From Siphonodentalium dalli (Eukaryota > Mollusca > Scaphopoda > Gadilida > Siphonodentaliidae), in NCBI GenBank assembly GCA_032622095.1, contig CP136061.1, positions 136,859,587 through 136,923,586 of the forward strand: a DNA stretch of 64,000 bases. The letters are read 5' to 3'. The translations under genes and the position numbers were made by a program. Under the pieces are notes generated by a model. The model made no database searches and had not been told where the DNA came from. It worked only from the letters and a program-made list of their open reading frames with translations. Of this stretch, positions 6,128 through 52,884 are shown piece after piece (the stretch's first letter is position 1; the number at the start of each line of letters is the position of its first letter).

Positions 6128-6625
6128 AGGCACGTGAGGCCTTAGTTGTCGAAAATATTCATATTTGTTCCAATCACCGTAAACAGAAAAACATTAAAAC
6201 GCATACAGTTTCGTTCATATATACCATGACCATCTCGTAAACAGCATGTTATCATAAAGATTTACTATATTTTACCTAAGCAAGAGCCTGATTGTGTTAC
6301 AGAATACAACACAATGCTGCTGGCTAATCACACACAAATGGCATAAACGCTCTTTATTCGTTCCATATCAGGAATTCACCCACAAAGAACGCTCTTTATG
6401 TTTACCATCATAATATAAACAAACACCAGAAAAGTAACTTTTTATGCTTTTGTTTACATAACAATGGTCACAAATATGACAATAACATACTGTTTATGCG
6501 ATATTTCTTATTTGTATACGGACAAAGTCTGTCTACATTTTGATGTTCTTTCTGTTTGTGGCGGTTTTTGACGGGTGGAAATATTTTCACAGGATACCCA
6601 CCGCCAAGGCCAACCGTACCTTTAA
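6124..6625 (+). mobile_element. Family B (TTAA) element, 502 bp, copy 1
   Basis: Begins TTAAAGGCACGTGAGG and ends GGCCAACCGTACCTTTAA. The ends are diverged inverted repeats: each holds a tttctgttt..ggcgg-like and a gaaatattttc-like block in opposite orientation. A second copy of the same length lies at 39421-39922, with about ten substitutions between them by eye, so they are only modestly diverged. The central part carries the paired AACGCTCTTTATT motif. It has no reading frame of note and is non-autonomous. Confidence 0.9.
6346..6400 (+). other. Paired 13-bp motif, 42-bp spacing
   Basis: AACGCTCTTTATT at 6346-6358 and AACGCTCTTTATG at 6388-6400, same strand, starts 42 bp apart. The spacer holds catatcaggaattcac, also found between the pairs at 33231 and 39643. 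Function unknown. Confidence 0.85.
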
Positions 6626-7350
6626 TAACTAATGACGAGATTTTGGCTATTGAATGCTTTAGGGAATGTTTATTTGGGATTTTTTAGTATCGAATGAAGG
6701 ATTTAAATAATTGCATTTATGCCCAGTTCATATGTCATAGTTCAGGGCCTGTTTCATGAAGCAATGTCATAAGATTATCTTTCAAGAACGCGTTTCACAA
6801 AACATCATACCCACTGCGAAAAACAGTGGTAGTAATTTAAGTTCGCGCGCTTTTAGACTGGCTCTCGACAATTTATTACAGCTATGCACAGAAAATGTTG
6901 GTTCTGTGTGTGTTATATGCCTAGGTACAGTGTCTGGTGACAGATACTAGGGCGTGTCTAAGAATAATTATGATATTTTAATGCAAGGGCGATAATCAGT
7001 ATAATGACTGGTGCATACTTAACTGCACGATCGCGCTTTTTAACTGTGTTTTCGCGTCATACCCCATCCACACATAGCTGCATGCTTCCAATGCCTATTT
7101 ATACAAACGTATCGAGCTCAAATATATTATTTCAGTTATTAAAGGGACTTATACATCCTAACTCAGAATGTGAACCTTCACACATATAACATGCCATTAA
7201 GGCGACGCGAGACATATGTTCGCTCCTTTCAATGCTGATATTAGGTTATAATACATTATACGTCTTTGAAGCATCTATAATACCAGGAAACCGAATATGT
7301 CGCCACGACGGCATACACATACAATACACCACAATGGAAGCACTGAGATA

Positions 7351-7407
7351 AACGCTCTTTATTGATTGCCAACATTCATGGAATACTAACACAAAACGCT
7401 CTTTATT
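7351..7407 (+). other. Paired 13-bp motif, 44-bp spacing
   Basis: Two exact copies of AACGCTCTTTATT at 7351-7363 and 7395-7407. The spacer differs from the other pairs. This pair is not inside a recognisable family-B element. Confidence 0.85.
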
Positions 7408-7644
7408 TATATTGCTATAATGTGAATAGGACTTCATATCGTGCTCCAAATAGACTTATTTCCAATCTGAGACATACTTGTAGAAGCCATATATAAATGA
7501 TGTTAGTGCCATTTGCTCTGGTTCTGTTGACAAATGTGCTAAACGCCTGTTATAATTAGCAAACTGCGTATGAACTTCGAAAGTACGTTACGTTGAACGA
7601 CATTCTACATATATGTTTTAATAAAAACCAAATCAACGACTTCT

Positions 7645-7657
7645 AATAAAGAGCGTT
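7645..7657 (-). other. Single copy of the 13-bp motif
   Basis: Exact AATAAAGAGCGTT, the reverse complement of the motif. It is followed by aacaacacgtgaac. A similar taacacgtgaac lies inside the pair at 52830. Confidence 0.75.
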
Positions 7658-7683
7658 TATAATTAACAACACGTGAACAGACG

Positions 7684-7792
7684 GCCGGTTCACAGGCCCC
7701 TGGGGAAAATTACTAAATACCAATATAGACTATACCACTGGTATAGTCTATATTGGTATTTTAGTAATTCCCCCACGGGTCTGTGGGCCAGT
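7684..7792. repeat. About 109-bp palindrome
   Basis: Centre at about 7738. The inner arms taccaatatagactatac and gtatagtctatattggta are perfect. The outer arms (ggttcacaggcccctgggg against cccccacgggtctgtggg) pair less well. It lies just upstream of the LINE remnant and probably represents a separate foldback insertion. Confidence 0.85.
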
Positions 7793-7807
7793 TCGCAGTG
7801 ATATTAT

Positions 7808-8440
7808 ATGTTCTTTCGCGGATCCCGGTGTGCCCGCGCGGTCCGTATACTATATACATGCTATATATCTTTTTATTATGAAAACTACATCTCAGCCCAT
7901 TCAAATTGTACTTGTGGTAATTCATGTGAAGACGCAAACCATTTTTTCTTCAGTTGTCCTCTGTACGCAGTAGCGCGAAATCGGATGTGGGCTCGTATGG
8001 ATGAACTTAACGTGACTATTGTCTCCGAAAAAGATCTCCTGTTTGGTGTACAACACTACAACGGAAAGCTAAATGCGCGCCTGTTTGAGACAGTACAATC
8101 ATTTATCTCATCTACAGACCGTTTCTCTTAATCTCTTAATCTAATAATTATCAGAATTTTCTCGTTATAGTTTCCCTTACCCCAATTCTGCGAGACCACA
8201 GCCACTCCAACAGCCACACTTAAACATTAACTTCTACAATACACCTGAATTAAAACCATCTCCGATATTTGAATTTATTAGCAATTGAATGCCAGGGGAG
8301 AGGAGCTCCGATAAGTTCGGCAACTTGTGCTCCGATCCTCTGTGCCCACACTCATACCATTATTGTTATATTTAATCTGTGTAATATATATTGTATATAG
8401 TGGGTCACAATAAATATGTTCAAATCAAATCATCTTTTTA
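7808..8440 (+). pseudogene. 5'-truncated non-LTR retrotransposon (LINE) 3' end
   Basis: A 107-codon open frame (7808-8131) keeps the C-terminal zinc-knuckle-like motif found after the reverse transcriptase in many LINEs. The cysteines are at residues 34, 36 and 50 with histidine 45 (C-x-C, then H-x4-C), within the string HFFFSCPLY, followed by a basic helix. Downstream lies a plausible 3' UTR with an AATAAA at 8409-8414 and a short repeated tail (caaatcaaatc). Everything upstream (endonuclease and reverse transcriptase) is absent. This is the usual result of incomplete reverse transcription. The first 25 or so codons are probably not part of the element. The clade was not determined; I-, Jockey- or CR1-like are all possible. 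Confidence 0.7.
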
Positions 8441-9417
8441 TTTCATAGTTAATAGATTATGATAATATACATAATCATAATAAAATAACACATATTAGGT
8501 ATTATTATCTTGTTGATATATATACGGGGTACATATACAATACATTTTTACAATCAAATTATAACATAATAATATAGAAAGGCAAGTAAATAATAATAAT
8601 AATAATAGCTGACATAAGCATTTATAAAAAAAACTGAGTATAAATCATTCACTATTATCCTCGATGTGAAAATGTTCGGACTAATTGTCTCAACATGATT
8701 ATTGTCTACAGTGCGATTGGGTGATTTGAATCGCAAATGATGTTCAACTCTATGTAAATATATTCTTTTTGTTACAGCAATTAGAAATGTATATATAGTC
8801 CGGTCTTGGCGGTTTACAGTTAGTAGCGGACACCCCGCTAATCTTGCAACCACTGGCCACGTCACTGCTATAGCTTACCAGTTGGTTATTAATTACTACC
8901 ATTTCTGAAACACCCCTCAGAGCTAGCAAGGTGTTATTCAGTTAAATGTGTTTATAATAATATATACATGAACTAGATCCCATCCACATTTCGGACCAAC
9001 TGCGGATCACAACGTAGGTCTTAACTTTAAGATTATCTTATGACACCTCACACCAGTCTTAAAGTTAAGACCAAAGTTAAGACCATCTTAGGTTAAGACT
9101 TTGTTCGTGAAACGCACTTATGACTGAAGTTTGAACTTATGACATCTTAAGTCCCAACTATGTCATAAGTTGCCTTCATGAAACAGGGCCCTGATATGGT
9201 ACAACTTATTTGATCAGATCATTTAGCAGAATACATCGATAGAGTGTATGAGTTGTCGAGACAATGGTTGGTCACGTTTAATGCAACCGAAACCAAGTCG
9301 TTTGTTTTTCGGCTAACACCCAACAACAATAGCCTAGACTTGAAACTAGACGAATATCTCATATAACAAGTCACCATGTAGTCATAAACATATTTTGTGG
9401 TCTCATTCAATCGCTTA

Positions 9418-9807
9418 GGGTAAGCTCACACACTGGCAAGTTTGCACGGTATGTATTGCAGGCATTTCGTGCCAGATGGCACCAGAATATAAACGGCAAC
9501 ATGCATAATTATACAATACATCTTTAAATCAAAGCTAACGTCATGGGAAGTAACATTTATGTAGTTCCACATGTAAGGGTGCTATTGACAATTGCCTTCA
9601 AATAGCTGTCTGATTGGGTCTGGCATGCTATTTACAGACACATTTCGGTAGCAATGTTACAGGTGGAACTACAGATATAGTACTTCTCACGTAATTTAGC
9701 TGTGGTACAAATGTCGGTTTCGGTTTATATTCTGGCACCATATCGTTTTCTAAGACGAAATGCCTACAAAACATACCGTGCAAATTTGTGAGTGCATGAA
9801 CGTACAC
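9418..9807. mobile_element. PIF/Harbinger-type MITE with TTA duplication, copy 1
   Basis: 390-bp foldback flanked by TTA at 9415-9417 and 9808-9810. Left end GGGTAAGCTCACACACTGG, right end with gtgcatgaacgtacac. Inner arms pair throughout: caagtttgcacggtatg with cataccgtgcaaatttg, and ggcaccagaatataaac with gtttatattctggcacc. A 3-bp TWA target duplication with GGG ends is the PIF/Harbinger mark. A second member is at 15543-15957. It has no coding capacity. Confidence 0.85.
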
Positions 9808-10262
9808 TTAAAGGTACTCAATCCGATCAGACGGTCCCCATACCATCAAGATACAACAATAACAACATTTCTTCAAAATACGCTTTAGTTATCAGAATCG
9901 ATTTATTGCAACAAAATAATGCTAACCACTGCAACTATGGTATCAAATTTCCCAAAACGTGTTATTTATCAACATTTTGTTCAACAAAATATGGCCGTAA
10001 AGTATCACGAAATCTGACCGTATTACCACTTGATTTTAGTGTTATCCATCTTCATCCGCACTTTTGTCCGAGACCCTCCTTTTGACCACGTGTTATTGGG
10101 CCACATATTATTACACATCTCGAGAAATAACAAACTTCAAAAATCGACATCTAATCACTTTGATTTGATGGATGGGTTCCTCGACTCGAATCAAATATTG
10201 TTTACATCCGAAGCCAAAGAAATAGTAATTTAGGAGCGTCTGATCGGATTGAGTACATTTAA
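9808..10262 (+). mobile_element. Family A (TTAA) MITE, complete copy
   Basis: 455 bp from TTAA (9808-9811) to TTAA (10259-10262). Ends TTAAAGGTACTCAATCCGAT and ATCGGATTGAGTACATTTAA are inverted repeats that extend to about 30 bp (gatcagacggtcc against gagcgtctgatc). Best reference copy in the window. Others are at 24366-24806 (reverse) and 49673-50099. Fragments are at 2466, 4541 and 30776-31446. Reading frames of 60-120 codons inside it are not conserved between copies. Confidence 0.9.
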
Positions 10263-11754
10263 AGGGACTCGGGGCATTCGAAGTGGGTCCATGCGAAATA
10301 ACACAATAATATAAACAACAGTTACTGTCATCAACAAATATATGTATACGAAAATATAGATCGACTTTGTTCTTGCTTTCATAATTAATAGCTCTCCAAT
10401 AATAGGATTTCGTCTGTTTAAACCATTGTTGAGTAAACATTACTGTTATGTACAGTGGAATTCCCGATAATGTCAAATTAGTCCATAAGACACCAAAGTT
10501 TTATCAAAACCTGACTGTGAACATATTCTGAAAATCATATTCAGACTAAAATATTTCAACTGTACACGACAAGCGAATTTTGTATAGTTTATTTGCTATA
10601 TCATAATAAGTTAACACGAAGCAGGTAAAACAAAGAAGATAATTGTAGACATAATATACAGAAGGAATACATTTCCGATGCCTTCACGTGAATTATCACA
10701 ACAAAATCATTATATATAGACTAATGTATAAACAATTCGAATCCATGTTACATATAACATTCATAAATTCTAACACATCCCACTGATGTCAGCCCCTTAG
10801 TAAGTATATAGAGAGGATAATTTTAAAATGGCAAATCACTTTATAACAGTTTTGTTCACATAACAATGGTTTCAACGCGCGAAATTTCATTAATAGAGAA
10901 TTATCAGTAATGAATATAAGAATAAAGTTTAGTATATGCTTGGCTATAAAATAGTGGAAAATTACCGAAACGTAAATCGTCGTATATGTATCTCTTATAG
11001 AAGCTACAGTGAAAACGCGTTCTGTTATTTCATAGTAGCTTTTTGTTATTTTACTGAAGCTTGCCATCACTTGAAAGCGGGTTGCTGCCCATCAGCTGAT
11101 CTGTATAAGAAATTTGGGCCAACCAGGAGTTGCTTTCCGTGTATTGTTAATTGGTTGTTCTATTAAAATTGAATACTTTTAATAGTACAGCAATTTGAAC
11201 AATACTCCAGTAGAATACTTCCTATACTAATAAAAAGAGCACAATTATATATACCTAGATAAAGCAACAAGACTGGTGCAAAGAAATGAAACACGGAATT
11301 GAAACTAACAAGTGTCGCGTCACCACAGTGGAAATATATACACCCCACGTGCACGGGTAACAGCTACATGATGCGTGATAAGTTGCCGATAGCCAATTTC
11401 TGACGACACTTGATCGATAATTAGATGTCAAGGGTGTCTGTTTCAACTTTGCGCGTGTGATTTTCTTCGGAAAGTATTTCGCTTGTTTTACTTAATTCTC
11501 CCTTCTACTTCTGGTTCTCCTGTGAAATGACGGATTAAATTATAAGAAATTAAGTTTATGGATTATAACAGATAAGATTGCAGAAAATTTACTATAACAA
11601 GCGGTTATAGAATCTGTCTTCAAATTTTTCGCTCGCGTAAACCACCCGGTGAAATGTAACAAAATCTACAGTGAAATAACGACATACTTTCATGCATTAA
11701 ATTTGTGTGTTTTAATCATATCTGGCGAACCAAATTGATGCAGAAGTGTAATAA
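10263..11754. other. No recognised gene or repeat beyond a short dispersed block
   Basis: The first 80 bp repeat the block at 5505. The rest is AT-rich, with several reading frames of 60-120 codons on both strands that overlap each other and match nothing I know. Confidence 0.4.
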
Positions 11755-11920
11755 ATAGAGTAATCAATTAGTTCCGATAATTGCGTTAAATAATTCACTC
11801 GAGGTGAGAGACGTTTATGTAAGAAATTCGTCCGCTAACGCGAACTCGTTTCTTACCGACGTCTCTCGCCTCTCGTGAATTATTTAACGTAATTCTCGGA
11901 ACCAATTGATTACTCTCTAT
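11755..11920. repeat. 166-bp palindrome
   Basis: Arms of about 60-70 bp: agtaatcaatt, gttccgataatt, gcgttaaataattcac and gagagacgt on the left answer tctctcgcc, gtgaattatttaacg, aattctcggaac and aattgattact on the right. The loop lies around 11825-11850. It is foldback-element-like. No convincing target duplication was seen. Confidence 0.85.
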
Positions 11921-12052
11921 ATAATTCATCATTCACCATTTGGAACGTCTGTGTCTCAGAAGGTGTACATAGAGTAGTAGAAAATAGCTGAAATCATAAT
12001 AATACCCCCCCCCTTTGTGGCTCCCAGAATGCAACATAATTCAAACTATAGT

Positions 12053-12121
12053 TTATTTCCAATGGAAGGGGAATAACTGTATATCTAAATATATAGAGTT
12101 ATTCCCCTTCCATTGAAAATA
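12053..12121. repeat. Perfect 19-bp-arm hairpin
   Basis: caatggaaggggaataact (12060-12078) and its exact complement (12097-12115) surround an 18-bp AT-rich loop. Outer ttattt/aaataa bases extend the stem. The ggggaataact core also appears in the tandem array at 45.8-46.5 kb as ggagttattcccc. Confidence 0.85.
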
Positions 12122-12288
12122 ATTGACTTTGTGCAGAAACCAGAGCACAGTTTCTAAAAAAACAACAACAACATGTTCACAGTTTATTACTTCGAATAAG
12201 TTTTGGAGCTTCTTCTTTCAAGTGGTACATAATATGGCATATATTTTATATAATGTGATATGCGGGTTCGAAAATTAAGTGGGCCTTA

Positions 12289-12934
12289 GGTGACACTCCA
12301 CAGTTTCAACAGGTAGGGGCCCAGAAATAGGGGCCCATAGATTCATTGAAATTTATCTGGATTATGATCCCAAACCATATAGACAATATATATATGCCTG
12401 AAATTAGTACAGAGTAGGCATTCACAATGTTATACATAAATTCCATAATATATGGGTTATCAAGAGTTATGGCCCTTGATTTTTTGATCGAAAATGTGAT
12501 TTTTATTCAAAAAATGACCAAAATATTGCATTTTCATACCCAAGGGGCACGAATACCAGATTTTTTCAAGCATGGTCACCTATGTTGGTTCAAAGGCCTC
12601 TGGCTTCTAACATCAATGTGAAAAAATTACAAACTTTCGCCGTTTACAATTCCAGAAAATCAATTTTTAATGCAGATGACAAATTTGGGGTGCTAAAAAA
12701 TTGACCCAGTATCTAGAGCCACTGTTTCGCAGAAAACGTTACTGCTGTCTATGGGTGGGGTCAAGGTCACTTGCACTTAATGTTTTCATCAGTCTAGAAC
12801 ACCTTCTAAAATTACACAAACTCATATCCCACCTTGTCTCAATATACATACCACATGAATGGTGCCAGAAACCACTAGCACTTTATATCTATAAAATCAC
12901 CCCTACTGATCATTCGAAACTGTGGAGTGTCACC
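12289..12934. mobile_element. 646-bp TTA-flanked element with GGTGACACTCC ends
   Basis: TTA at 12286-12288 and 12935-12937. Left end GGTGACACTCCACAGTTTC, right end GAAACTGTGGAGTGTCACC, a perfect 19-bp inverted repeat. A 3-bp TTA duplication with GG ends fits PIF/Harbinger-type insertion. The interior is non-coding: frames of 64 and 92 codons look like chance. Confidence 0.85.
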
Positions 12935-12937
12935 TTA

Positions 12938-15539
12938 AGAGATATGCAATATCATTTTCCGGTCATCGGGACTACATAACGATATTTCTGGAGTCATTCC
13001 GATTAAAATGATATACGACACCCCATGTATTACTTCAAATATTAGAAATGATAACAATTGGGGTTTTATGGTCACCCCCAGGCTTTTGCCCCATTTTGTT
13101 AAATTTCAAAGCCAATGACGTCATGTTTAACGTACTGGCTAAATAGGAACATTCCACCACTAATTGATGGTTGATAATGTTATAAAATGTTAAAATGCAG
13201 ATGATAAATTACTTCAGAATGCTTTTTTTTCTTCAATAATCATGTTACATCATAATAATTCATGTCACTATTATGTTAATACATATATTCCCAAAAACAC
13301 TGATTGGGTTCAGGCCTGATTGAATATAAAGAGAAAACCATTTAAAGTCTCTAAGACTGTGACATCACATAAACAATATGTTGTCACGTGAAACACAGCT
13401 TGGACAACATAAGTTGATCAATCGCAGTCATTGATATGCTTTAACTTTAATATTCTGATAATTTCATTGTGTTGCGCCTTGTTAATTTTAGTTTTTTTCA
13501 GCTATAAAACATGATGCAATGAAGACACACATGTAAATGATGTAGCATATGCTGTATCAGCTAACTGCATTGTCAGTTAGATGTCAACACACATGATTGA
13601 GAGAGAAATGAAGGAACTTCTGGAATTAGTTGAAGTATTTGGGTGTCTCCTCAGTCTGCCTGATGCTGCCTCTGATATAAATAGCTGTTATGATTATTAA
13701 AAACTGGCAGATGTATTGTGATTACCTAGGGGTAACAGCATATACTGACAATGACCCCCCCCCCATTTCCCCAATATTCTTGACATGGTCTTGGTTAATG
13801 CAATGTCCACCGCTCTAACAACACCCCACCCCACTGACAATGGGCACAAAATTTTATGTGTGGATGAAAACTCAACCAAATTTGACTCTTATATAGATCT
13901 TTTTCATAAATACTAAAGTAGATTCACACAGAAACTTGCACCAGAATGTTGAACTTGATTTGTATAATTTTATATGGATTGTCACTAAACACAGACCAAA
14001 TCTTGGCGAGTAATATTTGTCACCCCCCCCCCCCCCCCCCCATCCAATAGCCAGTCTACACTACTTTAGTAAAGTTTGCAACTAATATGGGCTATATGGC
14101 AAAAGGATACACATATTATACACTTTTCCACTTGGATGGGATATTTTACACAAAAGAGCTTTATTTAGTGAATTAAAGTAAAGTAAATGACAACAATTGT
14201 GATATTTTAGGCTGATCTTTAAATCACTGTACATTTCAAGATGGCGTATCTCTTCCCTGAAAATTCAGTATAGATTCAGTGGTTCAAAGTAATAAACACA
14301 TTTTCTCACTTGGAAATGATTTTGTTCTCCAATTTTTTTCTATGAACCGGGACAGAAAACGTGGCTATTAAAAAAAAATAGGACACTTTTTGTTTGTAAT
14401 CCATCTTTTTAAAACACTTTTAAGTGAAATACATGTATGGGCAACACCAGATGTTTATCGTATGATATTTTGGTAAAAATAATCGAAATGTGGCTTAAAA
14501 AAATGTATTTCATAGAAATTTGTTTGTTGTTGTAAGTGTTGACGGGAATAAATAGAGCATATTATTCACGTATAGAACCACACTTCGTAATTTTTCACAA
14601 CAAGAACAGGATTCTTGATCTTCCATGAAGATCTCCGATTGATATTTTACAATTTGCCTATATCTGGAAGATCGGCCATCTTGTATGACCATCTACCAAT
14701 AGCCGGTTACTAGGTTCCGCTGGCCCAGCTTATATTAAACGAGGTTATGAGCATCCAATATATCATCGAATGACTGCCCCATTTTTGTTAACAAAATATG
14801 AAATCTCTGTTTCGTATATAGATCGGCAGCTGAGAGATCGATTTAAACCATTCTGTCTGACTGCTACGACCTTTTGTGATGTTACGAGATGGAGTATACC
14901 AGATATCGGAATCAAACAGTCGTAATTTTGTGATTTAATAGACAGCTTCAGTTACACGTATACGTGGTATATATTTATTTATTACACACATACTGCCATC
15001 ATAAACATGTATTCAATGGATACAAGCCATTGAATACATATTATTGTACATATATGACAAGAGGATAAACATCGGAACTGCTTTGACTTGACGTTGTCTC
15101 CAAAGAGCGATGACTACCACACCGTACACAATGTCAACGATCCGTTTGGCAAGCTCCATGCAGAGTTCAGTCCCCTGCTACGCAGGACTTACCCATACCG
15201 GCACCTACGGCAATGAGAGAAAATCACTCATTGTTTTATTGGAGACTTTTGCAGGTTAAAATTCATTCTGTATTATTCTGAGAAACTGAACTGTCCATAT
15301 TTATTTAAAAATTGCCTAATTGACAAAACACTTCAATAACAAATCTCAGATTTAATTAAGAAAATACACTAGCGTAGCGAGGGTGTCAGAGTTAATAAAT
15401 CCCCCCTTGCCCAAACTTATTACATGATTCCATAACTGAGTATTTCTCGTAGGTAAATTTCACACGGCATGTTACAATGCATTTATTATTGCGTGCCATG
15501 AAAAATAACACAATACCGTGACTTTGACATAATCAGCGC
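12938..15539. other. No recognised gene; poly-C tracts
   Basis: Contains C runs near 13757 and at 14023-14041 (about 19 C). A block at about 14640-14700 is worded like the 'aagatggc' repeats seen at 34-39 kb (minus-strand gtcatacaagatggcc). Minus-strand frames of 60 codons (13697-13879, 14510-14692) are unsupported. No exon-like signals were recognised. Confidence 0.4.
15007..15039. repeat. Short perfect hairpin, 13-bp arms
   Basis: atgtattcaatgg (15007-15019) and ccattgaatacat (15027-15039) with a 7-base loop. Too short to class. Confidence 0.8.
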
Positions 15540-15542
15540 TAA

Positions 15543-15957: not shown

Positions 15958-15960
15958 TAA

Positions 15961-28008: not shown

Positions 28009-28372
28009 AATAAAGAGCGTTTCATTTGACGAGTCAGTCATGGTTACGAATACATATCATTGCAGTTAAATTGGGGAGTATATTGATGAATAATTTAGTA
28101 AAGTATTCACGATGACAACTCGAGTCCCACATTTTCCTTCACTATGACTCAATAAAGAGCGTTCCATGTTAAGAGTATTCCTTATATGGTGCGAATAAAA
28201 AGAGTTTAATAAACCGGAAATTGCTACGACTTTGACGGATATATAAAGCATGTATATCGCAAGTTCGTGTGCATGTATTTACGTGTATTTGTGTAAACAG
28301 TAAATAATCACGATGACAACTGTTCTAAGTCGAGTCCCAATTTTCCTTTACCATGACTAAATAAAGAGCGTT
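28009..28372 (-). other. Cluster of three 13-bp motifs (AATAAAGAGCGTT)
   Basis: Exact copies at 28009-28021, 28151-28163 and 28360-28372, all in the orientation that puts AATAAA first. The last two sit in a diverged direct repeat (cacgatgacaact...cgagtccca...ttttcctt...ccatgact). They follow the THAP remnant, so at least the first could have served as its poly(A) signal. That is inference. Confidence 0.8.
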
Positions 28373-31446: not shown

Positions 31447-33071
31447 TAAATACCTTTAAATGTGCGTGTTTTTTAAATTAAAAATAAATGCAAAGAACAA
31501 ACCTGACAGAGACTGCTGAGCTCTGGTTATGTCGGTGGGTGTGCCAAATATTATTTTAGTTACGGTTCAGGAGCAGAAATCACTACTTACAAGTTGAATC
31601 GGGATCCAGGGTAGGTTCAGATTACTCAGCCAGAGTACTTTATGTAACTTAGAACTCGGTTATGAATTCCATGTAATTTTAAAATCGGTTATGAATTCCA
31701 TGTAATTTTAAAATGCCCTGCGTTACAGACTCTACGAGAGATATATATAAAACCCAACTTCTACCGAAAACCGAATATTATTAAATTGAATGAACTATTC
31801 AATTCGGGAAAGTGGAAGAGAACACAAAATCTTTCACTATTCATTAATAGGGTTATGCCATTATTTAGGCTCTCCTGAGGCATTCTATAACTGCACACGT
31901 TAGGACACCACCATGGGTTATTGAATTAAATAATTGTTGAATTTCACTATATATTGTGTATTATCTTGCACATAATAATCACTCAAAACTCCTCATGCAT
32001 CGCACACTATATATATACTGTATTTTTGGCGACTGGTTTCATAGTGCACTCCTCTTACTGTAAAGTTTTCTGTCGCAGCCAGCGATGGCTATCCGTTGTG
32101 AATAGCGATCTTATTTCGCGGGAAGCTCGTGATTCACGACGACGAGTACAGTGATTGACAATCTAAACAGCATATCGAGGTCGTAGCTCAATGCAACTGG
32201 ATGGTTTACATGATATACATATACAGTCTCGAGCGGAGTAAAGTGATATATTGCAGAAAATAAATTTCAGGTGTTATTTGAGCTTATTAGAAACCATGAA
32301 ATCGTAACCGTCATTACGGATAGTAAAATACGAGAACGATTAGAAAGTATACAAAGGTTGGTGACGTAGTACCCTATCCGTATCCGTAATCGTAAACGTG
32401 AGTTTTGCGAAAGGTCTCTATTGTTAAAAAGGTACAACGTTTCGTATAAAAAGTAAACTGGACCTGATTTCTTTCAGACAAGTTCAGAGCAAAATACCAC
32501 CTAAAGAATCATGTCCGACCTAAAATATGTGTAAAATACCTAATAAATAGCGATATAAAACCAATAATTTCCACTCCTCAGAATATTAACATTAATTTCG
32601 TCGCTTGGAAGTCAAAAGACACATTTTCTCACTAAATTTTACGTTTTAGAATTGATATATAACTTCATATTTTAGCCGTTTTGACCAAAACCCTCATGAA
32701 CGCTTTATGCCATTTTAAGAAATCATTTAGATTCGTCTTGAATTAAATGCGACGTTTGTTTCAACATACGAATTATGAATTAAACTCGAGTATAATTCGA
32801 ATTTAATTCGAGTCGTCGGTAGTGCGACGTTTGTTCCAAGGGTTAGCCGTTAATATCATTTTTCGACAACCTTAATCTATCGTGACGTCAGTCGTGCGCT
32901 GACAGCAGCCCACGTTTATTTGGCAAGGTGCCATACTTGTTAATTTCAGTTCATAAGACAAAATTGTTGATAAATAAATAAACAAATAAATTTACTAATA
33001 TTATGGAATTATATTGGGGGAAAACAAGAAGTTTGATCAATATTGGGATTAAGCGGACATGGCTCATTCGA

Positions 33072-33103
33072 CCTTCCAAATTATGTCTACGTAATTTGGA
33101 AGG
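33072..33103. repeat. Perfect 12-bp-arm hairpin
   Basis: ccttccaaatta and taatttggaagg with an 8-base loop. It is read by overlapping frames on both strands (32951-33242) that are unlikely to be genes. Confidence 0.8.
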
Positions 33104-33230
33104 TGGTTTTGTCAGATATAGGTTGACAAAAACACTAAATATTGACATACCGGCTTCATATGCTTCAAAATACTTTCCTTGGTCACAGCTATTTTCCGAG
33201 ATGTTTAAATTTTGGCACATAAGTGAAACA

Positions 33231-33285
33231 AACGCTCTTTAATTTTATCATATCAGGAATTGACTAGCACGGAACGCTCTTTTCT
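33231..33285 (+). other. Paired 13-bp motif, 42-bp spacing (variant)
   Basis: AACGCTCTTTAAT at 33231 and AACGCTCTTTTCT at 33273. The spacer keeps catatcaggaatt exactly as in the family-B pairs, while the flanks are unrelated. It is the strongest hint that the pair plus spacer is itself a unit. Confidence 0.8.
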
Positions 33286-33696
33286 GTTGCATGCATGCCG
33301 TGCAAATGGCTGTTTTTTTGTTTGGGACACAGCCGTCGTGTTCAATGTTGTATGACTTCACTGTGTCTTTCTAGGACATAGTAGAAAGTAGAAAGGTATA
33401 GTATTTATCGACCTACTTCGCTACCGGGAAAAATTTCAAAAGCGAATATTATTAGGTGTAGTTTGGAGCGCATTCCGCCATGTGGCTTTAAATTATAAGC
33501 ATTAACTCTTTTTTAGGTTAAGATTATGAGTTCTCCACTTAATTTCGCGTGTTGAAACCATTGTTATGTAAATAAAACTGTAACAGTGACCGATCAACAA
33601 ACAGCGCTAGCTCTGTAGTAATTTCAAACAGTTTAGTCTGAATATACATGTTGTTCAATGCTTTGACCTTTTCCACTTCTTGTCGTTAAGTTTTGA

Positions 33697-39099: not shown

Positions 39100-39420
39100 T
39101 ACCAGCCTCCTTCGGCATCAGCACATTACCATGCGGACATAATCACATAACACGATCTATCTTCAGATGACGGCCGAGGTCCGTTAATTATCTCAGCAAC
39201 TGATTCATAGTCCCAAGACCATAAACCGACCCAATGCTGAGTTTCTACCTGTAGCAGAAAACCTTACACATATTTTCTTTGCTCTTGTAATCATTTTGGA
39301 AATGGGCATACTTTTGGCACTTAAAACACCTTAAAGGGGGTGGTACAACTAGTAAGTGGCCAATTTCCACGTATCAAACATGGGTGTTGAGACCGATTGA
39401 ATATCAGAACATATAGGTGT

Positions 39421-39922
39421 TTAAAGGCACGTGAGGCCTTAGTTGTCGAAAATATTCATATTTGTTCCAATCACCGTAAACAGAAAAACATTAAAACGCA
39501 TACAGTTTCGTTCATATATACCATGACCATCGCGTAAACAGCATGTTATCATAAAGATTTACTATATTTTACCTAAGCAAGAGCCTGATTGTGTTACAGA
39601 AGACAGCACAATGCTACTGGCTAATCACACACAAATGGCATAAACGCTCTTTATTCGTTCCATATCAGGAATTCACCAACAAAGAACGCTCTTTATGTTT
39701 ACCATCATAATATAAACAAACACCAGAAAAGTTACTTTTTATGCTTTTGTTTACATAACATTGGTCAAAGATATGACAATAACATACTGTTTATGCGATA
39801 TTTCTTATTTGTATACGGACAAAGTCTGTCTACATTTTGTTGTTCTTTCTGTTTGTGGCGGTTTTTGACGGGTGGAAATATTTTCACAGGATACCCACCG
39901 CCAAGGCCAACCGTACCTTTAA
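39421..39922 (+). mobile_element. Family B (TTAA) element, 502 bp, copy 2
   Basis: TTAA at 39421-39424 and 39919-39922. Same length and order as 6124-6625 with roughly ten substitutions by eye, against much greater divergence among other repeats here. Likely among the youngest insertions in the window. Carries the motif pair at 39643-39697. Confidence 0.9.
39643..39697 (+). other. Paired 13-bp motif, 42-bp spacing
   Basis: AACGCTCTTTATT at 39643 and AACGCTCTTTATG at 39685, within family-B copy 2. Homologous to the pair at 6346, so not independent of it. Confidence 0.85.
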
Positions 39923-42768: not shown

Positions 42769-42780
42769 TAGCATATTTCA

Positions 42781-43033: not shown

Positions 43034-43084
43034 GCTTAAGTCATGCTTCACTTTACGATTTTCTTGTTTGGTAATCGAGTCATA

Positions 43085-43492: not shown

Positions 43493-43984
43493 ATACACAT
43501 GTGCAATTGTGTGTTTTCGGGCTTAAAATGGGTTTTCGGTATTTACTATAAACAAGTGCATTGATGGGATTATAAATGCAGTTTTTGTGGAAATAAGTAG
43601 CTCTACGCACGAAACGAGTTCTAAATGACATTCTTCAATTGAATATATATTTTGTTCACGCAAATAACCCTCCGTTGATTATTAAAGGAATTACTACATT
43701 AGGGTGATGCCACCTTCGCCGGAAACAAACAATATAGAAGCTGGCAATGTCACTACTGCTATGCTATGTATTAATCTCTTAAGACGTGAGTCGCATGTTA
43801 CTGTTAATCAAGCCCACATTACCCAGCTATGTTTTTTTTTTCGCTCTGGGGACAATGTGTCTGTTGATAATTCAGTTGTCTTGCCATCGTACATGTATGA
43901 GCCAACAAATTTCACTGTACGCCGGTTGTGGTCCACTTATATATAATTCAATATAAAATATGTGATTTATAGTCATAGCAATCG

Positions 43985-44105
43985 ATGTCCACGTCACCAG
44001 TCCGTCATTGTCGCTTCATTTGGCTAAGGACTGTAGAAATCTCAGATTAAATTACAATAATTTCGTGTGTATTTTATAACGATTGTATATTTGGTGGTCC
44101 TCGTT
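43985..44105 (+). repeat. Three-copy dispersed repeat, copy 3
   Basis: gtcaccagtccgtcattgtc, gcttcatttggct, aatctcagattaaattaca and tttcgtgtgtatttt. The most diverged of the three. Confidence 0.65.
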
Positions 44106-45796: not shown

Positions 45797-46570
45797 ATTA
45801 TACCCCCACAACGAAGTTAGGGGGGGGGGGTATACTGGAGTCAGCTTGTCCGTCCGCCGTCCGTCGTCCGTCCGTGGACACAAATTTTCCGGAGTTTTTC
45901 TCAGCTGTTTTTTTTATCAATTTCCGTGAAACTTGGCACAGGCATCAACCACCATGTGAACCTGTGCACCTGCGATTATGACGTCTGTCGGCCTTTTTTT
46001 GTTGGAGTTATTCCCCCTTTTTCGACTTAGAATTTTTTTGCAACATGTATAATTTTGTCCGAGCTTTTATTCCTACATTTCTTGGTCAATTTTTTTTAAC
46101 TTGGCACAGACATTTAGTACCATGGGAACCTGTGCACCTGCGATTATGACGTCTGTCCGGCATTGTTTGGTGGAGTTATTCCCCTTTTTTGACTTAGACA
46201 TTTTTTGGCAACATGCCTAATTTTGTCCGAGCTTTTATTTCTACATTTTTAGGTCAATGTTTTTTAATCTTGGCACTGATATTTAGTACCATGAGAACCT
46301 GTGCACCTGCGATTATGATGTCTGTCCGACTTTTTTGTGGAGTTATTCCCCTTTTTCGATTTAGAACATTTCTGCAAAATGTATAATTTTGTCCCGAGCT
46401 TTTATTCCCACATTTTTCGGTCAATAGGTTTAAGATTACGGTTAGGTTTGTGCACCTGCAATGGGAACTGTTATTTTATTATTTTAACTAAATGTTTCCT
46501 GACATATGAAACATCTTAGTATTTTAAAAACACGGGGGGGGGGGGGGTATCCTTAGTCCCATTGGGACAG
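45797..46570 (+). repeat. 169-bp tandem array between poly-G tracts
   Basis: Starts tatacccccac, a G run and tatactggagtc, then a cgtccgtccg microsatellite. Three and a half units follow with landmarks cctgtgcacctgcgattatg at 45961, 46129 and 46298 (a weaker one at 46447), ggagttattcccc and cgagcttttattcc. It ends in a second G run and tatccttagtccc. Same general plan as pearl-type elements (short tandem core plus microsatellite), seen often in bivalves; class not proven. The gacggacgg / ataactcc words near 46735 suggest a reversed fragment. Confidence 0.8.
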
Positions 46571-46863
46571 TCACATCTCTAGTTATATAAGGTGGCTTTA
46601 TTTGACAGGTGGCTTTTTTTTTATAAATGAAACAATTGATTCTGGGAACAATCATATCAAGCTTCGCTTCCAACTAGTTATAATGTTAACATATTTGATT
46701 AGATACCAGAACAACAATTGGCAAATTATAAGTCGAAAAGGGGCATAACTCCATCAGAAATGGTCGGACGGACGGACACAGTTCATTTCTATAGTCTCCG
46801 GAAAAAAAATTCGGGTGACAAAAATATGTATATGTGGTTGCCAGTATATAGAGATTATCACTA

Positions 46864-47006
46864 CAGTGAAGTGATCTGAGTCTCCATATCACGCCGAGTT
46901 GAGAAGGTGAGATCCCAGATCAGACGAGCTGCCGCAGGCTGCGAGTCTGATCTGGGATCTCACCTTCTCAACGAGACGTGATGTGGAGACTCAGATAACT
47001 TCACTG
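46864..47006. mobile_element. Tc1/mariner-type foldback MITE, second family
   Basis: 143-bp hairpin flanked by TA (46862-46863, 47007-47008), ends CAGTGAAGT and ACTTCACTG. Arms pair over about 70 bases (ctgagtctcca, gttgagaaggtgagatcc, cagatcagac and partners) with a loop gagctgccgcaggctgcga. CAGT ends with TA duplication fit Tc1/mariner. Confidence 0.88.
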
Positions 47007-47316
47007 TAGTAATAATATGTTTATTATATGACCAATTGAACTTAATTCTTACAAACAACTTATGAAATTATTATTTTTTAAAAGGGGATCAGTTGAGTTC
47101 AAATTTAATTAACAAATCGCAACAATTTAATCAACAACAATTTAAGATTAAATTTCTCAATTGAAAATAGTCCAGGAGCCTCGTTCTGATTCAGACACGC
47201 ATGCTCTGGAATCGGATCACGATACTATCATGATCCGATTTATCGGAAAACCATCACCAAACGATAGTGGTATTTAGTGACAATAATGACAGTCATATAA
47301 TAAAAGTATATATTAT

Positions 47317-48450
47317 GACCGGATTCGTCATCTCCAGTTTAAATCGGGTTTACGGAAGCGTCTAGGTTTAAAACACCACGTGGGAGCTAAATCTCTGGTT
47401 TATACCCGATACCCCATATCTATAAACAACACATTCGCCATCTCTACAATAGCTAATTACGTCAACGAGCATAACAATTTATTTTAATTGGAAGTTTATG
47501 TCTGTACTTCCTCATTGGTTGTGATAAGGAAATCAATATTAATTTGTTTTAACCATAGCCGTTTCGAGATCTTTTTTTCTTGCTAAAATATGTGATAAAA
47601 TGGATCTCAATTCGTCGCAATTCTATACGAAATTTATAATTCGTTTCGAGCCTCGCTAAAGCACGACTCGGATCTAATTTAGTGCACATAGTTAATAGAT
47701 TTCTTATTGAATTGCGACACATTAGAGATAATCTATATATCACATGAAACCCCTATTATTTCATTAAAAAAGCCATTACATATTTTCTTATATCTCACTA
47801 GTGATGAATAGGCGCGTGCTTCCTGAGATACTTGGCATTGCGCCAACAAAATTACCACGCGGATTAATTATATTTCGAAAAGCCGCTCGTGATACCAACA
47901 CCAGATATTTCAAAATGATTGCTTTGTTCATTAAAGTTAAATTATTGTCCAACTTCGTTGCACTAACGAAAATAGGCATAAAACAGAGGCAAATTGGGGA
48001 ACTATATTTTTCTTCGGAAGCCAGAGCGCGCAATACTGTCGTATACGGTTGTGAATCGTCTCAGCCAACGCCGTGCATGTATACATTTTTCAGCTTCTTT
48101 TATAGATTTTGATTTGTTGGGATATAAGATTTTAATGAAACTTGTTTCATAAATAAGATTCACAATTAAATTGATCAAACTCGTATAATAAAATATTATA
48201 TCCCAACATAACGAGTTGGAGTCAGTAATGCATGTATGTAGAGATTGTGCACAGCATGAAGTGTTACAATCTCCTCTATTGAGAAGTTTATTGGTGAAAT
48301 TGTTGACAGTTCTTCATTTTGGCTTGTGGCAGTCACAAATATTGGTGCATTCTATGGCTCGATTTTGAAGGATCCAATATTTGGTTTTGAAGCGGAACAA
48401 AGTTACTACATTATATATATAAAGCTAAAGTTGATAACTTATTTTGATGC
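47317..48450 (+). mobile_element. GGATTCGTCATCTC element, partial copy
   Basis: Left end gaccggattcgtcatctcc, then repeated gtttaaa words, tacgtcaacgagcat, ggcttgtggcagtcac and gataacttattttgatg, collinear with 57905-58700 of the fuller copy. The right inverted end was not found. Frames at 47549-47743 (minus) and 47801-48112 (plus, 103 codons) are absent from the other copy and unassigned. Confidence 0.7.
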
Positions 48451-49429
48451 AGGTTAAAATGCTTGAGTATTTTTCTAGCTGAGTAAAAAACTTGTTTCAC
48501 TGCTTATGGTCCGTCCACCACCCGGCCTACGTGTCTGTATCGCGTTTACGCCCTCCTCACTGAATAGTGCTTACATCTTATTATAAACTCATCCTTGTTC
48601 AAACGCTCTGGGGATGTTTCCTGCGTGTATTTTCTAAATTACAATATCAGATCAGTTCCGTCTTGTCAGAATAATGGTGTCTCTATCTGTTCGTGTTGAA
48701 CAAAATTATCGGTCGCAAATATTATATTATTTAAAATTCACAAAGCCCAATTTTCCGCTTGCCATACAGGCGAATGAAATATTTGAAATCTAATTAAATA
48801 ACACGTGCACATGCACCACGAAAACTCGCCGCAAGAACACCCAACATGAGGGTATGCATAAAGACGCATTTTAGGAACGGGTTGTATTGTACAATGTAAA
48901 TGAGGACCAGGACATACGTCACTAATGTAATCTATAAACCATCTGCTATCCGGAACTCACGCAGTTGATGATCTGGGCATTTGTTGCAGGAGTTATTGTA
49001 CGTACGAGTACTAGTAATACATGTACATACAACAACTGTCCTGATTGCAACCATGTGTATTACGTGCATATAATCTCCCCATCTCAGGACATCATAGGAG
49101 TGCCTTATTCGAATGTCTTATTCGATTGCCTTATATATTCGAATGCCTTATTCGCTGCCTTATTCGACCCATTGGATAAACAATTGCCTTGGTTCTCCGC
49201 TGGCCTCATCCACATATTCACATTCCACATGTTTGTACACTATATATCACATCACCAACTGAGCGGCGAAAGGTGAAAGAGGAACGATTTCTACTATTAT
49301 CAAGAGAAACAAACGTTTTATACCATTTTTTTTAGTTAAAGGAATTAGTCTGTCAAAAAAATATTTTTTTTATCGTCATAATATATATGTCTAAGAAAAC
49401 ACAACCTAGATAAAATCAAATTATTAGTA
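48451..49429. other. No recognised gene; short tandem at 49101-49165
   Basis: Five imperfect copies of a 12-18-bp unit (tgccttattcga) at 49101-49165 sit inside a 103-codon frame (48965-49276), which is therefore suspect. Nothing else recognised. Confidence 0.45.
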
Positions 49430-49560
49430 CAACGGGGCGGCAGGTAGACACCCCTCTTGGTTATGCTGTCTGATAGCTATTTTGTACTATTACATTGTAT
49501 AGATAATTGTATATACTATATGAATGAGTTATGAATAAATAATCATAGTCATAGTCATAC
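49430..49560 (+). mobile_element. Possible LINE 3' end with (atagtc)n tail
   Basis: gcggcaggtagacacccctc...gagttatgaataaataatc followed by three catagt units. Shape of a non-LTR 3' UTR and tail. No coding part. Confidence 0.4.
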
Positions 49561-49672
49561 CAGTGAAAGCGAGTACGTGTAATTTACGAACATCTATTAA
49601 ATGGTTTAGGTGTGTTTGATGTTCAAAATCGTGCCTATTTTCCTTGTATATTTTAGTTATACATATGAATTT

Positions 49673-50099
49673 TTAATGGTAATCAGATCAGACGGTCCCC
49701 ATACCATCATGATACAACAACAACATTTCTTCAAAATACGCTTTAGTTATCAGATTCGATTTATTGCAACAAAATAATGCTAACCACAGTCAACTATCGT
49801 ATAAAATTTCCTAAAACTTGTTATTTATCAACATTTTGTAAACAAAATATGGCCGTATTATTACTAAAGTATCACGAAATTTGACCGTATTACCACTTTA
49901 TTTTAGAGTTATCCATCATCATCCGCAATTTTGTCCGAGACCCTCCGTTTGACCATGTTTCTGGACCACATATTATTACATATCTCTAGAAATAACTAAC
50001 TTCAAAAATCGATATCTGATAACTCTTAGCTTTTATATTTACCCCCGAAGCCAAAGAAATAGTAATTTAGGAGCGTCTGATCGGATTGAGTACCTTTAA
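49673..50099 (+). mobile_element. Family A (TTAA) MITE, near-complete copy
   Basis: TTAA at 49673-49676 and 50096-50099. Collinear with 9808-10262 (gatcagacggtccccatac, acgctttagttatcag, ttatcaacattttg, ctcctaatt-type end) with a deletion of the tcctcgactcgaatc block near 50020. Confidence 0.88.
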
Positions 50100-51003
50100 C
50101 GATTAATGATTGTTGAATGTGTGCATTGTGAATTTCCACGGCTCATGTACTAGTTTATAACACAGACAACCGTTTGTATATATTTTAAACAAATTAAAAA
50201 TAAACACACCTTTAGGTTAGAGCTTCAGTGTTGACGTAGTTTGTGGGCCTGCATGCTATTGTCTTTTACAAAACGGAAGATCTGGGCTTCGAAAACTGGG
50301 TTTAGAGGTGCCGTATCGATCAGATTTTAAACAATCCTATCGAACCTTTGAGTCCATTCATTTGAGGTTTTGCTGGTCAAATGTCGACACAGAAGATGGT
50401 CGGGCACCCAAAAATTCAAGAGGTCATGCTGCTATGACAAAGAGCGATTACATTTCCTTATATACCCATGAACTGCGAGATGTCCAACTATGGACACATT
50501 TGACCAAAGATGGAGGGGCGAGTAACCTCCAACTCCTCATGCCGACTCGACTCTATACTGATGCATACACATTGCGATTATCAGTCAGTTAATCCGCACG
50601 AGGTTCACACGGGCCATATTCGAGAACCTATTTCAACATTAGTTTTTTTTATATTTTCCAAGGAGGTCAGCAAGCTACGAGATTTTGACGGTCAAATTTC
50701 ACAGTCTCGAACATTAGTGACTAAAGTCACTTGCACACAGATCATCTCAATGGTCATACCTATACCGGTATTTACAGGCTATGGGGGACGCGATTCATAG
50801 TGAGCTAGTAAAGATTAATATGTAACTCTCATCCGCTATCTTTTCTGGTTGAGTTATTTATATGTGTGGAAAAAACGATGAATTTTACTAAATTCGATGT
50901 CAGACATATTGCCACAATTTGCGAGCAAATTTTGCCCGATCCTCTCTTGAACATTTATATTATATTTCATGTCTACGTATTGTACTTTTGTTCTGGCAAC
51001 ATA
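50100..51003. other. No recognised gene
   Basis: Two overlapping plus-strand frames (50308-50592, 94 codons; 50510-50800, 96 codons) in a somewhat less AT-rich stretch. No domain recognised. I would not call them genes without transcript data. Confidence 0.35.
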
Positions 51004-51351
51004 TTCTCGCACAAATACGCACATATTCGACCGATGAAGTGAAATAGGAACAATGAGAATATTTGATTCCGAAATAAGCAGATAATGGAGTCATATCCGT
51101 TATTTCGTTTCATGGCGCGGGCCACAGTCAAAACACATGTTAAGGAGTGTACACCTGAAACGACATGAGTTGGCTTATTTGTGACATTGTCCGCACATAT
51201 TTGCTTAGAATCTCCTCATTATGAGTCGACAATGTGACTAAAACGCTCTCATTTCAGCACATTATCGACTCAAAATTAGGCGACTGTAAGCAGATTATCT
51301 ACCTACAGTAAGTTCTATTATAAGCAGATAATGTTCGGATTTTTGTGAGAG
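51004..51351. repeat. About 348-bp interspersed repeat, copy 1
   Basis: Ends ttctcgcacaaatacgcac and ttttgtgagag are weak inverted repeats. Internal aagcagataatg/cattatctgctta-like and gagtcgac/gtcgactc-like words alternate on both strands. A second copy at 60859-61188 shares gaaataggaaca, cgttatttcgtttcatggc, cctcattatgag and cagcacattatcgactc. MITE-like, class unknown. Confidence 0.75.
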
Positions 51352-52829
51352 CACGCTGGTTCTGTTTAGTTCCAATAACATATTAATTAAACCAAATTAT
51401 GACGTAGGTTCCCGGCCTACGTGGTTAACCATTTCTTTTCTTAATACCCATTGACGTAGTTATCACATGAAACGTTCAGAATATATATATATGACCCCTT
51501 CTGCACTTTTATTATCTGTCATTCTGCTTATTTTCCCTGAAACCCCTCCAGATGGATAGTAGACCATTTCAAAGGGTTAAGAATTGCTGACGTTGCGCCA
51601 TTCATCATTGTAGCACGCTTGTCTAGTGACTAGTCGTGGATTGATAGGTGTTTCGTTCCATTTCCGATACAAGAATTGATTTTAAATCCAACACATATCA
51701 CCCTGTACACCAGAGAGATATAAATCGCGGAGACTGGAATCCGACTATCAGAGCTCCGTCTGTAATTTAGGTACACCATTCTGTATGAATTTACATCAAG
51801 GCAGTATGGGGAAGACATCGAGTTAGGCTATCAGCCAGCATCCTCAGAAATGGCTGTATCGCTGCTTGTGTCTGTTACTTTGTATACCATCATGGCATAG
51901 CCGTATCCGGACCAGGGGGCTGGGGTGTAGCAAACAATTTTCGGTCAAATTCGGGCAATTTGAATGGTATTTCAGGGGAAATTGTGGCATATTACAGTAT
52001 TTTTCACATTTCGACCCGAATTATTCATATTAAAGATTAATTTGAATCAATTTTGTTATATAAAAGTAAAACAATTCTGGCAAACAGTCTCAGCCCCCTA
52101 AACATTTGGGCGCCCGTACGGCTATGATCATGGTACACATAGTTATAGACACAGGCAGGGATACAGCCAATGGAACATGAAAGGGGAGTAGTGTGTGGGT
52201 AATCATTTGTATTAGTCGAATGTACATGCATAGAATACAAATTGAGTAAGCGTTTCGTGGTTTGATGGGCGTTTGAATACCGATATATGAAAAAATCAAT
52301 ATTTAACCTGTGTAAAATGGCATAAAAAAGAGTTCGATGAAGATGAACCAACATTTTTGAATTATGTATTAGGCACCAAAATCAAGGGAAATTGTTAACT
52401 TGTGTTACCTAATAGCAGTACTTCAGATTTCAAAATTAGTATATAGGAGTCTCCTATATACTACGTTTAGAAGATAAACATTTATTTTGGGTTATATTCA
52501 ATTGGGGTAAAATACTAACAAATAATAAAATGGATTGTTAGGTGTTAACAAACGTGGGCGCTGAAATTAATTTTGGCCTTACAGAAAATAATTTTCAAGG
52601 TATAAAATTTTCTATCACGGAATGCTGATATTTAAAGATATGAACATATGAAATAGCCTAAAATCTAAGTCAAACAAATTGTTCTCTAAAAACCGGTGAT
52701 TATGCTAATTATGCTACGTGCACACACTGGAAAATTTGTCTAACAATGTTTTCATCTAACAAAAAAAATCCCCGAAGTCATGGAGAATTATCAACTGTAT
52801 TCAACCCCCACCTATGCATTTGTGAGATG
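51352..52829. other. No recognised gene; 25-bp perfect palindrome at 52438-52462
   Basis: agtatataggag-t-ctcctatatact is a perfect 12-bp-arm hairpin. Overlapping minus frames (52037-52354, 105 codons; 52090-52299) are unassigned. Confidence 0.45.
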
Positions 52830-52884
52830 TACGCTCTTTATTGTTATCATATAAGTAACACGTGAACAATGTGCGCTCTTTAAG
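52830..52884 (+). other. Paired 13-bp motif, 42-bp spacing (variant)
   Basis: TACGCTCTTTATT at 52830 and TGCGCTCTTTAAG at 52872. The spacer shares ttatcatat with the 33231 pair. Lies 70 bp before, not within, a family-B end. Confidence 0.8.

What the first reader, a model, noticed from the sequence alone, without database searches (positions are those of the whole stretch)
6346..52884. A 13-bp motif in same-strand pairs at a fixed 42-bp spacing
AACGCTCTTTATT or a close variant occurs 14 times; CGCTCTTT is invariant and 8 copies are exact. Pairs start at 6346/6388, 7351/7395, 33231/33273, 39643/39685 and 52830/52872, so the spacing is 42, 44, 42, 42 and 42. Singles in reverse lie at 7645, 28009, 28151 and 28360. 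A given 13-mer is expected well under once in 64 kb. Two pairs sit in copies of one MITE, which leaves four independent contexts. The spacing equals four turns of B-DNA, so two proteins would sit on one face. The spacer word catatcaggaatt is kept in three pairs. I know of no named element with this plan. It may be a regulatory module, a transposase-binding pair, or a tiny mobile unit.
Basis: seen in the sequence. Interest (0 to 1): 0.78.

Follow-up and report, generated by a model that had tools for sequence, protein, structure and literature searches.

The report
Shared DNA box in many repeats
A short DNA word, often in same-strand pairs, recurs in many otherwise unlike non-coding repeats of one genome, most likely because a protein that the repeats depended on binds it; the 42-base spacing is mainly a habit of one large repeat group and not a general rule.

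Summary
In detail: the 14 sites, 8 exact copies and five spacings are correct, and CGCTCTTT occurs 16 times against 0.93 expected. A sixth, decayed pair lies at 28151/28194. In the whole 2.23-Gb genome AACGCTCTTTAT occurs 124,758 times against 467 for its reversed control. Same-strand pairs 27-57 bp apart number 50,926 against 686; convergent pairs 732; divergent pairs were not counted.

The fixed 42 bp is not general. Of the first 100 listed pairs 39 are at 42, by my reading 35 of them from one TTAA-type MITE group; 15 other spacings occur. The copies do not collapse to one repeat: 65 fetched sites form 26 flank clusters. The box has sharp borders, no consensus RNA fold, and recurs in minisatellites. 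In two families tested it decays at the local rate after insertion, with a weak hint of CpG retention. Five histone and eight piggyBac loci lack it.

Best reading: a DNA-binding-protein site kept by selection on mobile repeats and spread partly by cassette exchange. The protein is inferred. Nearest known: Meloidogyne satellite boxes and C. elegans m1m2/HIM-17.

The parts
6346..6400 (+). pair 1, spacing 42, spacer with CCATATCAGGAATT, inside MITE copy about 6121-6626 (TTAA-type ends)
   Evidence: MITE extent by BLAST
39643..39697 (+). pair 4, spacing 42, inside the second copy of the same MITE, about 39420-39922
7351..7407 (+). pair 2, spacing 44, in repeat family 'L' (matches 6831-7585 and 7610-7684); other copies at C1:10.50, 10.51 and 10.70 Mb
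7645..7657 (-). single box in reverse in family L; also present in the copies L026, L102 and L025/L101
28009..28021 (-). single box in the repeat stretch that also holds 28151 and 28360 (relatives L030, L039)
28360..28372 (-). single box; its surroundings resemble those of 28151
33231..33285 (+). pair 3, spacing 42, in repeat family '33' (about 33048-33492); 40 matches reported including this one, the search's scoring cap, the others 78-81% identical
52830..52884 (+). pair 5, spacing 42, degenerate second box, spacer CATATAAGTAA; no wider relative among L001-L040
15102..15109 (-). bare CGCTCTTT without the rest of the word
50439..50446 (-). bare CGCTCTTT without the rest of the word

Best explanation
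AACGCTCTTTAT(T) is a binding site, at the DNA level, for one sequence-specific DNA-binding protein of this organism (a host factor or a transposase-derived protein). Many non-coding repeat families carry it, often as two or more same-strand copies around a family-specific spacer, that is a cassette of about 60 bp. Shown: the abundance, the many unlike contexts, sharp borders, direct over convergent orientation, variable spacing, tandem arrays of box-plus-spacer units, sharing of the cassette between repeats whose flanks do not match, and decay at the local rate after insertion in two families. Inferred: that a protein binds it, that binding was needed by the repeats while they were mobile (open chromatin or transposition), and that recombination between direct boxes makes arrays and swaps cassettes.
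For: Exact 12-mer 124,758 copies against 467 control. Same-strand pairs 50,926 against 686 control; convergent pairs 732 against 20, those listed mostly from one palindromic repeat. 26 flank clusters in 65 sites with the box masked, Chao1 41; 68 non-redundant contexts among 255 sites in L001-L097 and the window. Outside -3 to +10 no position exceeds 0.28 bits. Between MITE copy A and the consensus of subfamily I both 13-bp boxes are identical while the whole is 75% (49 of 522 windows do as well, and the whole cassette at 87% is matched by 67 of 480 windows, so weak alone). Cassettes of 58-69 bp match at 76-82% between places whose flanks do not match. Arrays of 30-44 bp units holding the box in 14 of the 20 array loci fetched. 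CpG lost: box 8/55 against 88/349 in MITE I (p 0.09), 3/28 against 31/96 in family 33 (p 0.03).
Against: No binding, chromatin or expression data. Outside CpG the box mutates like its surroundings after insertion (MITE I 3.2% against 3.0%; family 33 8.6% against 9.8%). Eight piggyBac loci and five histone loci have no box, so it is not needed by every mobile element or promoter. The one long coding element found right beside a pair was a nested insertion. Some families are related through the spacer, so independent gains are fewer than clusters.
Confidence: 0.5

Rival explanations
1. Recombination cassette without a dedicated function: one ancestral minisatellite or repeat unit was captured by many repeats, and box-bounded segments are exchanged and amplified by recombination at the short direct repeats.
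For: Cassettes bounded by the boxes are shared by unlike repeats (54 of 540 inner homology ends have a box within 12 bp in both partners; 5.3% of positions lie that close to a box). Families C and J share the right flank but not the adjoining left one, breaking at the first box. Some arrays use the spacer and period of a known pair, for example L068 and L070 and family 33.
Against: Neutral spread alone does not explain why 12 bp stay exact while spacers and flanks become unrecognisable. The 540 ends are not independent, 12 of the 54 come from one palindromic family, and BLAST tends to stop at a conserved anchor.
Confidence: 0.22
2. Transposase-binding pair of one large group of non-autonomous TTAA-type elements; other occurrences are debris of that group.
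For: By eye, MITE A/I and family 33 have TTAA-like ends and family E a TTAA-like left end.
Against: Eight piggyBac loci with long open frames (of 128 matches reported; several of the eight nearly identical) have no CGCTCTTT on either strand in about 4 kb each. Families F, 89 and 52 show no TTAA at the borders that BLAST gives. In MITE A/I and family 33 the boxes are central, not terminal.
Confidence: 0.14
3. Ordinary inheritance: a few high-copy repeats, with 42 bp simply the distance in their consensus.
For: By my reading of the spacers, 35 of the 39 pairs at 42 bp in the listing belong to one MITE group.
Against: The same 12-mer lies in 26 flank clusters in 65 sites and in arrays and palindromes with other spacers.
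Confidence: 0.08
4. Host promoter or enhancer module functional in most copies.
For: Weak CpG retention in the box; precedent of m1m2 pairs in C. elegans MITEs (PMC9757741).
Against: Decay of the box at the local rate in 28 and 14 retained copies of two families; none in five histone loci of one array. A co-opted minority is not excluded; proximity to genes was not tested.
Confidence: 0.04
5. RNA element such as a ribozyme, poly(A) or processing signal.
For: The reverse strand reads AATAAAGAGCG; some spacers can form short hairpins (by eye).
Against: No Rfam match at the gathering score in the window or in 20 loci; consensus fold of 16 cassettes has 0 pairs; the T that completes AATAAA on the other strand is only partly kept (26 of 40).
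Confidence: 0.02

Closest known systems
Box 1 (CENP-B-box-like, 17 bp) and the 19-bp centromeric box of Meloidogyne satellites (PMC3694981, PMC9673304; passages seen)
   Same: A short box kept in otherwise divergent tandem repeats; monomer junctions at the box; proposed protein-binding and rearrangement site
   Different: There 11 divergent satellites; here MITE-like elements, singles and minisatellites, 124,758 exact 12-mers, a different word, often in direct pairs
m1m2 motif pairs in the MITEs CERP2 and CELE2, bound by HIM-17 (PMC9757741; abstract and part 1 of Results read)
   Same: Motif pairs with preferred orientation embedded in MITEs; many copies outside accessible chromatin
   Different: m1 and m2 are two motifs in two related MITEs with tested promoter activity; here one motif repeated head to tail in many repeat families, activity untested
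Cg_HINE non-autonomous Helentrons with satellite-like central repeats in oyster (PMC7492417; abstract and section list seen)
   Same: Repeats built as modules: varying flanks combined with tandem units
   Different: The abstract mentions no short word common to all its clusters; Helentron ends were not tested here
Traffic jam in Drosophila ovary (PMC7618790; search listing only)
   Same: Recalled, not read here: a host transcription factor exploited by several transposon families
   Different: Recalled: retroviral elements there; non-coding repeats here
Minisatellite core sequences; subterminal binding motifs of En/Spm transposons (recalled, no call)
   Same: A short core shared by many tandem arrays, or repeated factor-binding words in an element
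   Different: This box is shared across many repeat families

Membership tests
Meloidogyne-type satellite box | short motif conserved among tandem repeats with little other similarity | tested here: met
   in 14 of 20 array loci fetched the unit (30-44 bp) holds the box; the spacers fall into several groups, some alike within a group
Meloidogyne-type satellite box | similarity to the CENP-B box | tested here: not met
   best ungapped match of the 13-mer to YTTCGTTGGAARCGGGA (quoted) is 5 letters, fewer than the shuffle mean of 6.2
Meloidogyne-type satellite box | monomer or segment junctions located at the box | tested here: inconclusive
   54 of 540 homology ends; dependent data and anchor bias
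HIM-17/m1m2-type system | motif pairs inside MITEs | tested here: met
HIM-17/m1m2-type system | two different motifs forming the pair | tested here: not met
   the pair is one motif repeated; a CCN6GG-like second box is only weakly enriched (17 of 68 against a control mean of 7.8, largest control 16)
HIM-17/m1m2-type system | germline promoter activity and binding by a THAP-domain protein | not testable with these tools
   no expression or binding data
piggyBac-mobilised MITE | TTAA target and matching ends | tested here: inconclusive
   TTAA-like ends of MITE A/I and family 33, left end of family E (by eye); no significant match of MITE A or I to 8 piggyBac loci (best E 0.17)
Rfam RNA element | match at the gathering score | tested here: not met
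   0 matches in the window and 20 loci

The most novel reading that the evidence does not exclude
One protein of this species reads a genome-wide network of more than 100,000 dispersed boxes: a CENP-B-like or HIM-17-like factor whose site many mobile repeats have acquired or exchanged, possibly marking chromatin along whole chromosomes as is proposed for the 19-bp box of Meloidogyne. The box would then be an address tag that repeats need in order to be accessible in the germline.
Probability: 0.17. Interest if true: 0.85.

Novelty: new variant of a known kind. Interest (0 to 1): 0.6.

Why it matters
Short protein-binding boxes shared by divergent repeats are known from some satellites and from two worm MITEs. 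A single 12-bp box kept in dozens of repeat contexts, at over 100,000 exact copies, would point to selection acting on mobile DNA through one host or transposon-derived factor, and it gives a defined bait with which to find that factor.

Tried and rejected
Promoter of a LINE: the pair in L025 lies about 100 bp before the start of an endonuclease-RT reading frame, but the LINE is a clean insertion into the repeat (the box-less-insert copies run on from 604 to match X at 582 and again from 4304), so this was dropped.

U7/histone processing idea (AAAGAGC on the reverse strand, recalled): five histone loci of one array, of 150 matches reported, hold no box on either strand. General element of all transposons: eight piggyBac loci of 128 matches hold none. 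RNA structure: no Rfam match, no consensus pairs.

Selection on copies: (whole element as control) showed no constraint in 34 copies of MITE I; one search gave 11.0% against 14.6% in 20 copies of family 33; (unselected half only) suggested about half the rate in the box (p 3e-4 and 2e-5), but rearranged copies and a gradient along the element produced this: with 28 of 34 and 14 of 20 copies kept and local controls the difference vanishes. CpG retention remains as a weak hint (p 0.09 and 0.03). The 40 MITE A copies are 99-100% identical and were not used for this test.

Second box CCN6GG / CArG-like: clear in some groups, weak overall (17 of 68). Literature for the word itself: 72 papers hold at least one of six forms; the 30 listed look unrelated to repeats by title and start of abstract; none was opened. 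on motifs shared by transposon families: 18 papers, nothing relevant in the 10 listed. led to the oyster paper, to the nematode papers.

Not done: divergent pairs (AAAGAGCG...CGCTCTTT), distance to genes, distribution along chromosomes.
Full report
Observation. The stated sites, exact copies and spacings are correct. CGCTCTTT occurs 16 times in the window against 0.93 expected, with no shuffle of 100 above 4. As a control for a word chosen by eye, ranked over-represented 9-mers of the window by distinct contexts: the others near the top contain or overlap a palindrome, and CGCTCTTTA (13 copies in 9 contexts, 0.26 expected) is the strongest that does not.

Whole genome. AACGCTCTTTAT occurs 62,322 + 62,436 times against 245 + 222 for the word read backwards. 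CGCTCTTT pairs on one strand with spacing 27-57 occur 25,730 + 25,196 times against 342 + 344, with spacing 58-88 9,422 + 8,575 times against 868 + 1,140 (many of those listed are two units of an array). Convergent inverted pairs with gap 19-49 occur 732 times against 20; of the places listed most come from one palindromic repeat. Divergent pairs were not counted.

Spacing. The first 100 listed pairs, all in the first 11.7 Mb of contig 1, have spacings 28 (2), 31 (12), 32, 33, 35 (5), 36 (3), 37 (15), 39 (2), 41 (7), 42 (39), 43 (2), 44 (3), 46 (5), 49, 55, 56. By my reading of the spacers 35 of the 39 at 42 belong to one MITE group; the 15 at 37 are one locally duplicated family. Over 40 spacer families in the loci then fetched and the window 10 are at 42; phasing with the helix is weak (p 0.08, 0.017 and 0.005 at 10, 10.5 and 11 bp, uncorrected and against a rough null). 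So 42 bp is mostly inherited within one group, but the pair is not confined to that group.

Contexts. Of 100 consecutive AACGCTCTTTAT sites at the start of contig 1 (C1:42,659 to 3,120,597) 65 were fetched with enough flank; with the box masked they form 26 clusters, the largest of 18. Of the 35 left out, 21 are by position tandem copies of three repeats already sampled and most others have MITE spacers, so the cluster count is not a random-sample estimate. In L001-L097 and the window 255 sites reduce to 68 non-redundant contexts. A position table of 40 hand-picked representatives, some distantly related to each other, gives A-A-CGCTCTTT-A-T with no position above 0.28 bits outside -3 to +10; CGCTCTTT is fixed there by the choice of sites and the flanking letters partly so.

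Carriers. The box is found in (a) TTAA-type MITEs A/I/A2, about 500-530 bp, pair near the centre; (b) family 33, about 445 bp, with TTAA-like ends in some copies; (c) family L with a pair and a reverse single; (d) groups C/J/K/M, F and H with longer tandem repeats nearby, and group E; (e) a palindromic repeat; (f) minisatellites: in 14 of 20 array loci the unit of 30-44 bp holds the box, the spacers falling into several groups; (g) many singles, among them a repeat of about 1.57 kb in tandem. Cassettes of 58-69 bp, from just before the first box to just after the second, match at 76-82% between places whose flanks do not match, for example MITE A and family 33; some of these matches are between two cassettes of one family. 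Families C and J share the right flank but not the adjoining left one, with the break at the first box. Of 540 inner homology ends (matches of 60 bp or more, ends at least 40 bp inside both pieces, small loci contained in larger ones dropped) 54 have a box within 12 bp in both partners, while 5.3% of positions lie that close; the ends are not independent and 12 of the 54 come from the palindromic family.

Fate after insertion. Copies were chosen by sequence outside the pair. MITE I: 34 copies, 28 kept after dropping rearranged ones; non-CpG positions of the box 18/558 (3.2%), local control 74/2452 (3.0%). Family 33: 20 of the 40 reported copies fetched, 14 kept; 24/280 (8.6%) against 116/1190 (9.8%). 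CpG lost in the box 8/55 and 3/28, in other CpG up to the pair 88/349 and 31/96 (p 0.09 and 0.03). An earlier version without local control gave apparent constraint and is withdrawn. So in these families most copies are not under host selection; the box, if selected, is selected while elements move. Better CpG retention would fit protein cover or low methylation in the germline but is weak evidence.

Negative controls. Five histone loci (one array, of 150 matches reported) and eight piggyBac loci (of 128 matches reported; several nearly identical) hold no CGCTCTTT on either strand. The one long reading frame found just downstream of a pair, a LINE, is a nested insertion. No Rfam family matches and 16 cassettes show no consensus fold. 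The word does not resemble the CENP-B box (5 of 13 letters at best, below the shuffle mean of 6.2).

Reading. The simplest account of a sharply bordered word kept in unlike repeats, without RNA structure and decaying after insertion, is a DNA-binding site that mattered to the repeats when mobile. The direct arrangement can arise by tandem duplication, which also explains arrays with the period of a pair. Whether the protein is a host factor or transposase-derived is open. A purely recombinational cassette is the main rival.

Comparison. The nearest published cases are the boxes of Meloidogyne satellites (a 17-bp box in 11 divergent satellites, junctions at the box, a 19-bp box associated with CenH3; PMC3694981 and PMC9673304, passages seen) and the m1m2 pairs of C. 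elegans CERP2/CELE2 bound by HIM-17 (PMC9757741, abstract and part 1 of Results). Oyster Cg_HINE elements show modular flanks and central repeats (PMC7492417, abstract). In the one full-text search for the word the 30 of 72 papers listed look unrelated by title and start of abstract. I class it as a new variant of a known kind: same principle, different word, direct pairs, and a larger and more varied set of carriers.

Noticed in passing
window, several places: Palindromic words are over-represented in many contexts: TACATGTAT (20 copies), GTTTAAACC (15 copies, 12 contexts), AATCCGGAT (8), CCGGATCCG (7 against 0.13 expected), TGACGTCAT (6).
   Followed up: no
window 7691-7785: Imperfect palindrome (97-bp inverted self-match at 88.7%) directly after repeat family L.
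   Followed up: no
L025/L101 (about G000 C1:10,504,582-10,508,304): A LINE with endonuclease and reverse transcriptase frames, broken into several frames, inserted about 30 bp after a box pair.
   Followed up: partly
G000 C1:2.24-5.04 Mb: Spacer family B (37 bp) recurs 15 times in the listing; three copies compared are about 95% identical over 1 kb, and one lies about 1.1 kb from an SRCR-domain frame in L099, as in a local gene-cluster duplication.
   Followed up: partly
L013, L014, L080: Repeats built of palindromes of the type CGCTCTTTAG...CTAAAGAGCGGTATAC, where the box is inverted as well as direct.
   Followed up: no
window as a whole, and MITE I copies: CpG observed/expected is 0.97 in the window, yet CpG positions in MITE I copies changed about twice as often as the rest (15.6% against 6.8%).
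   Followed up: no
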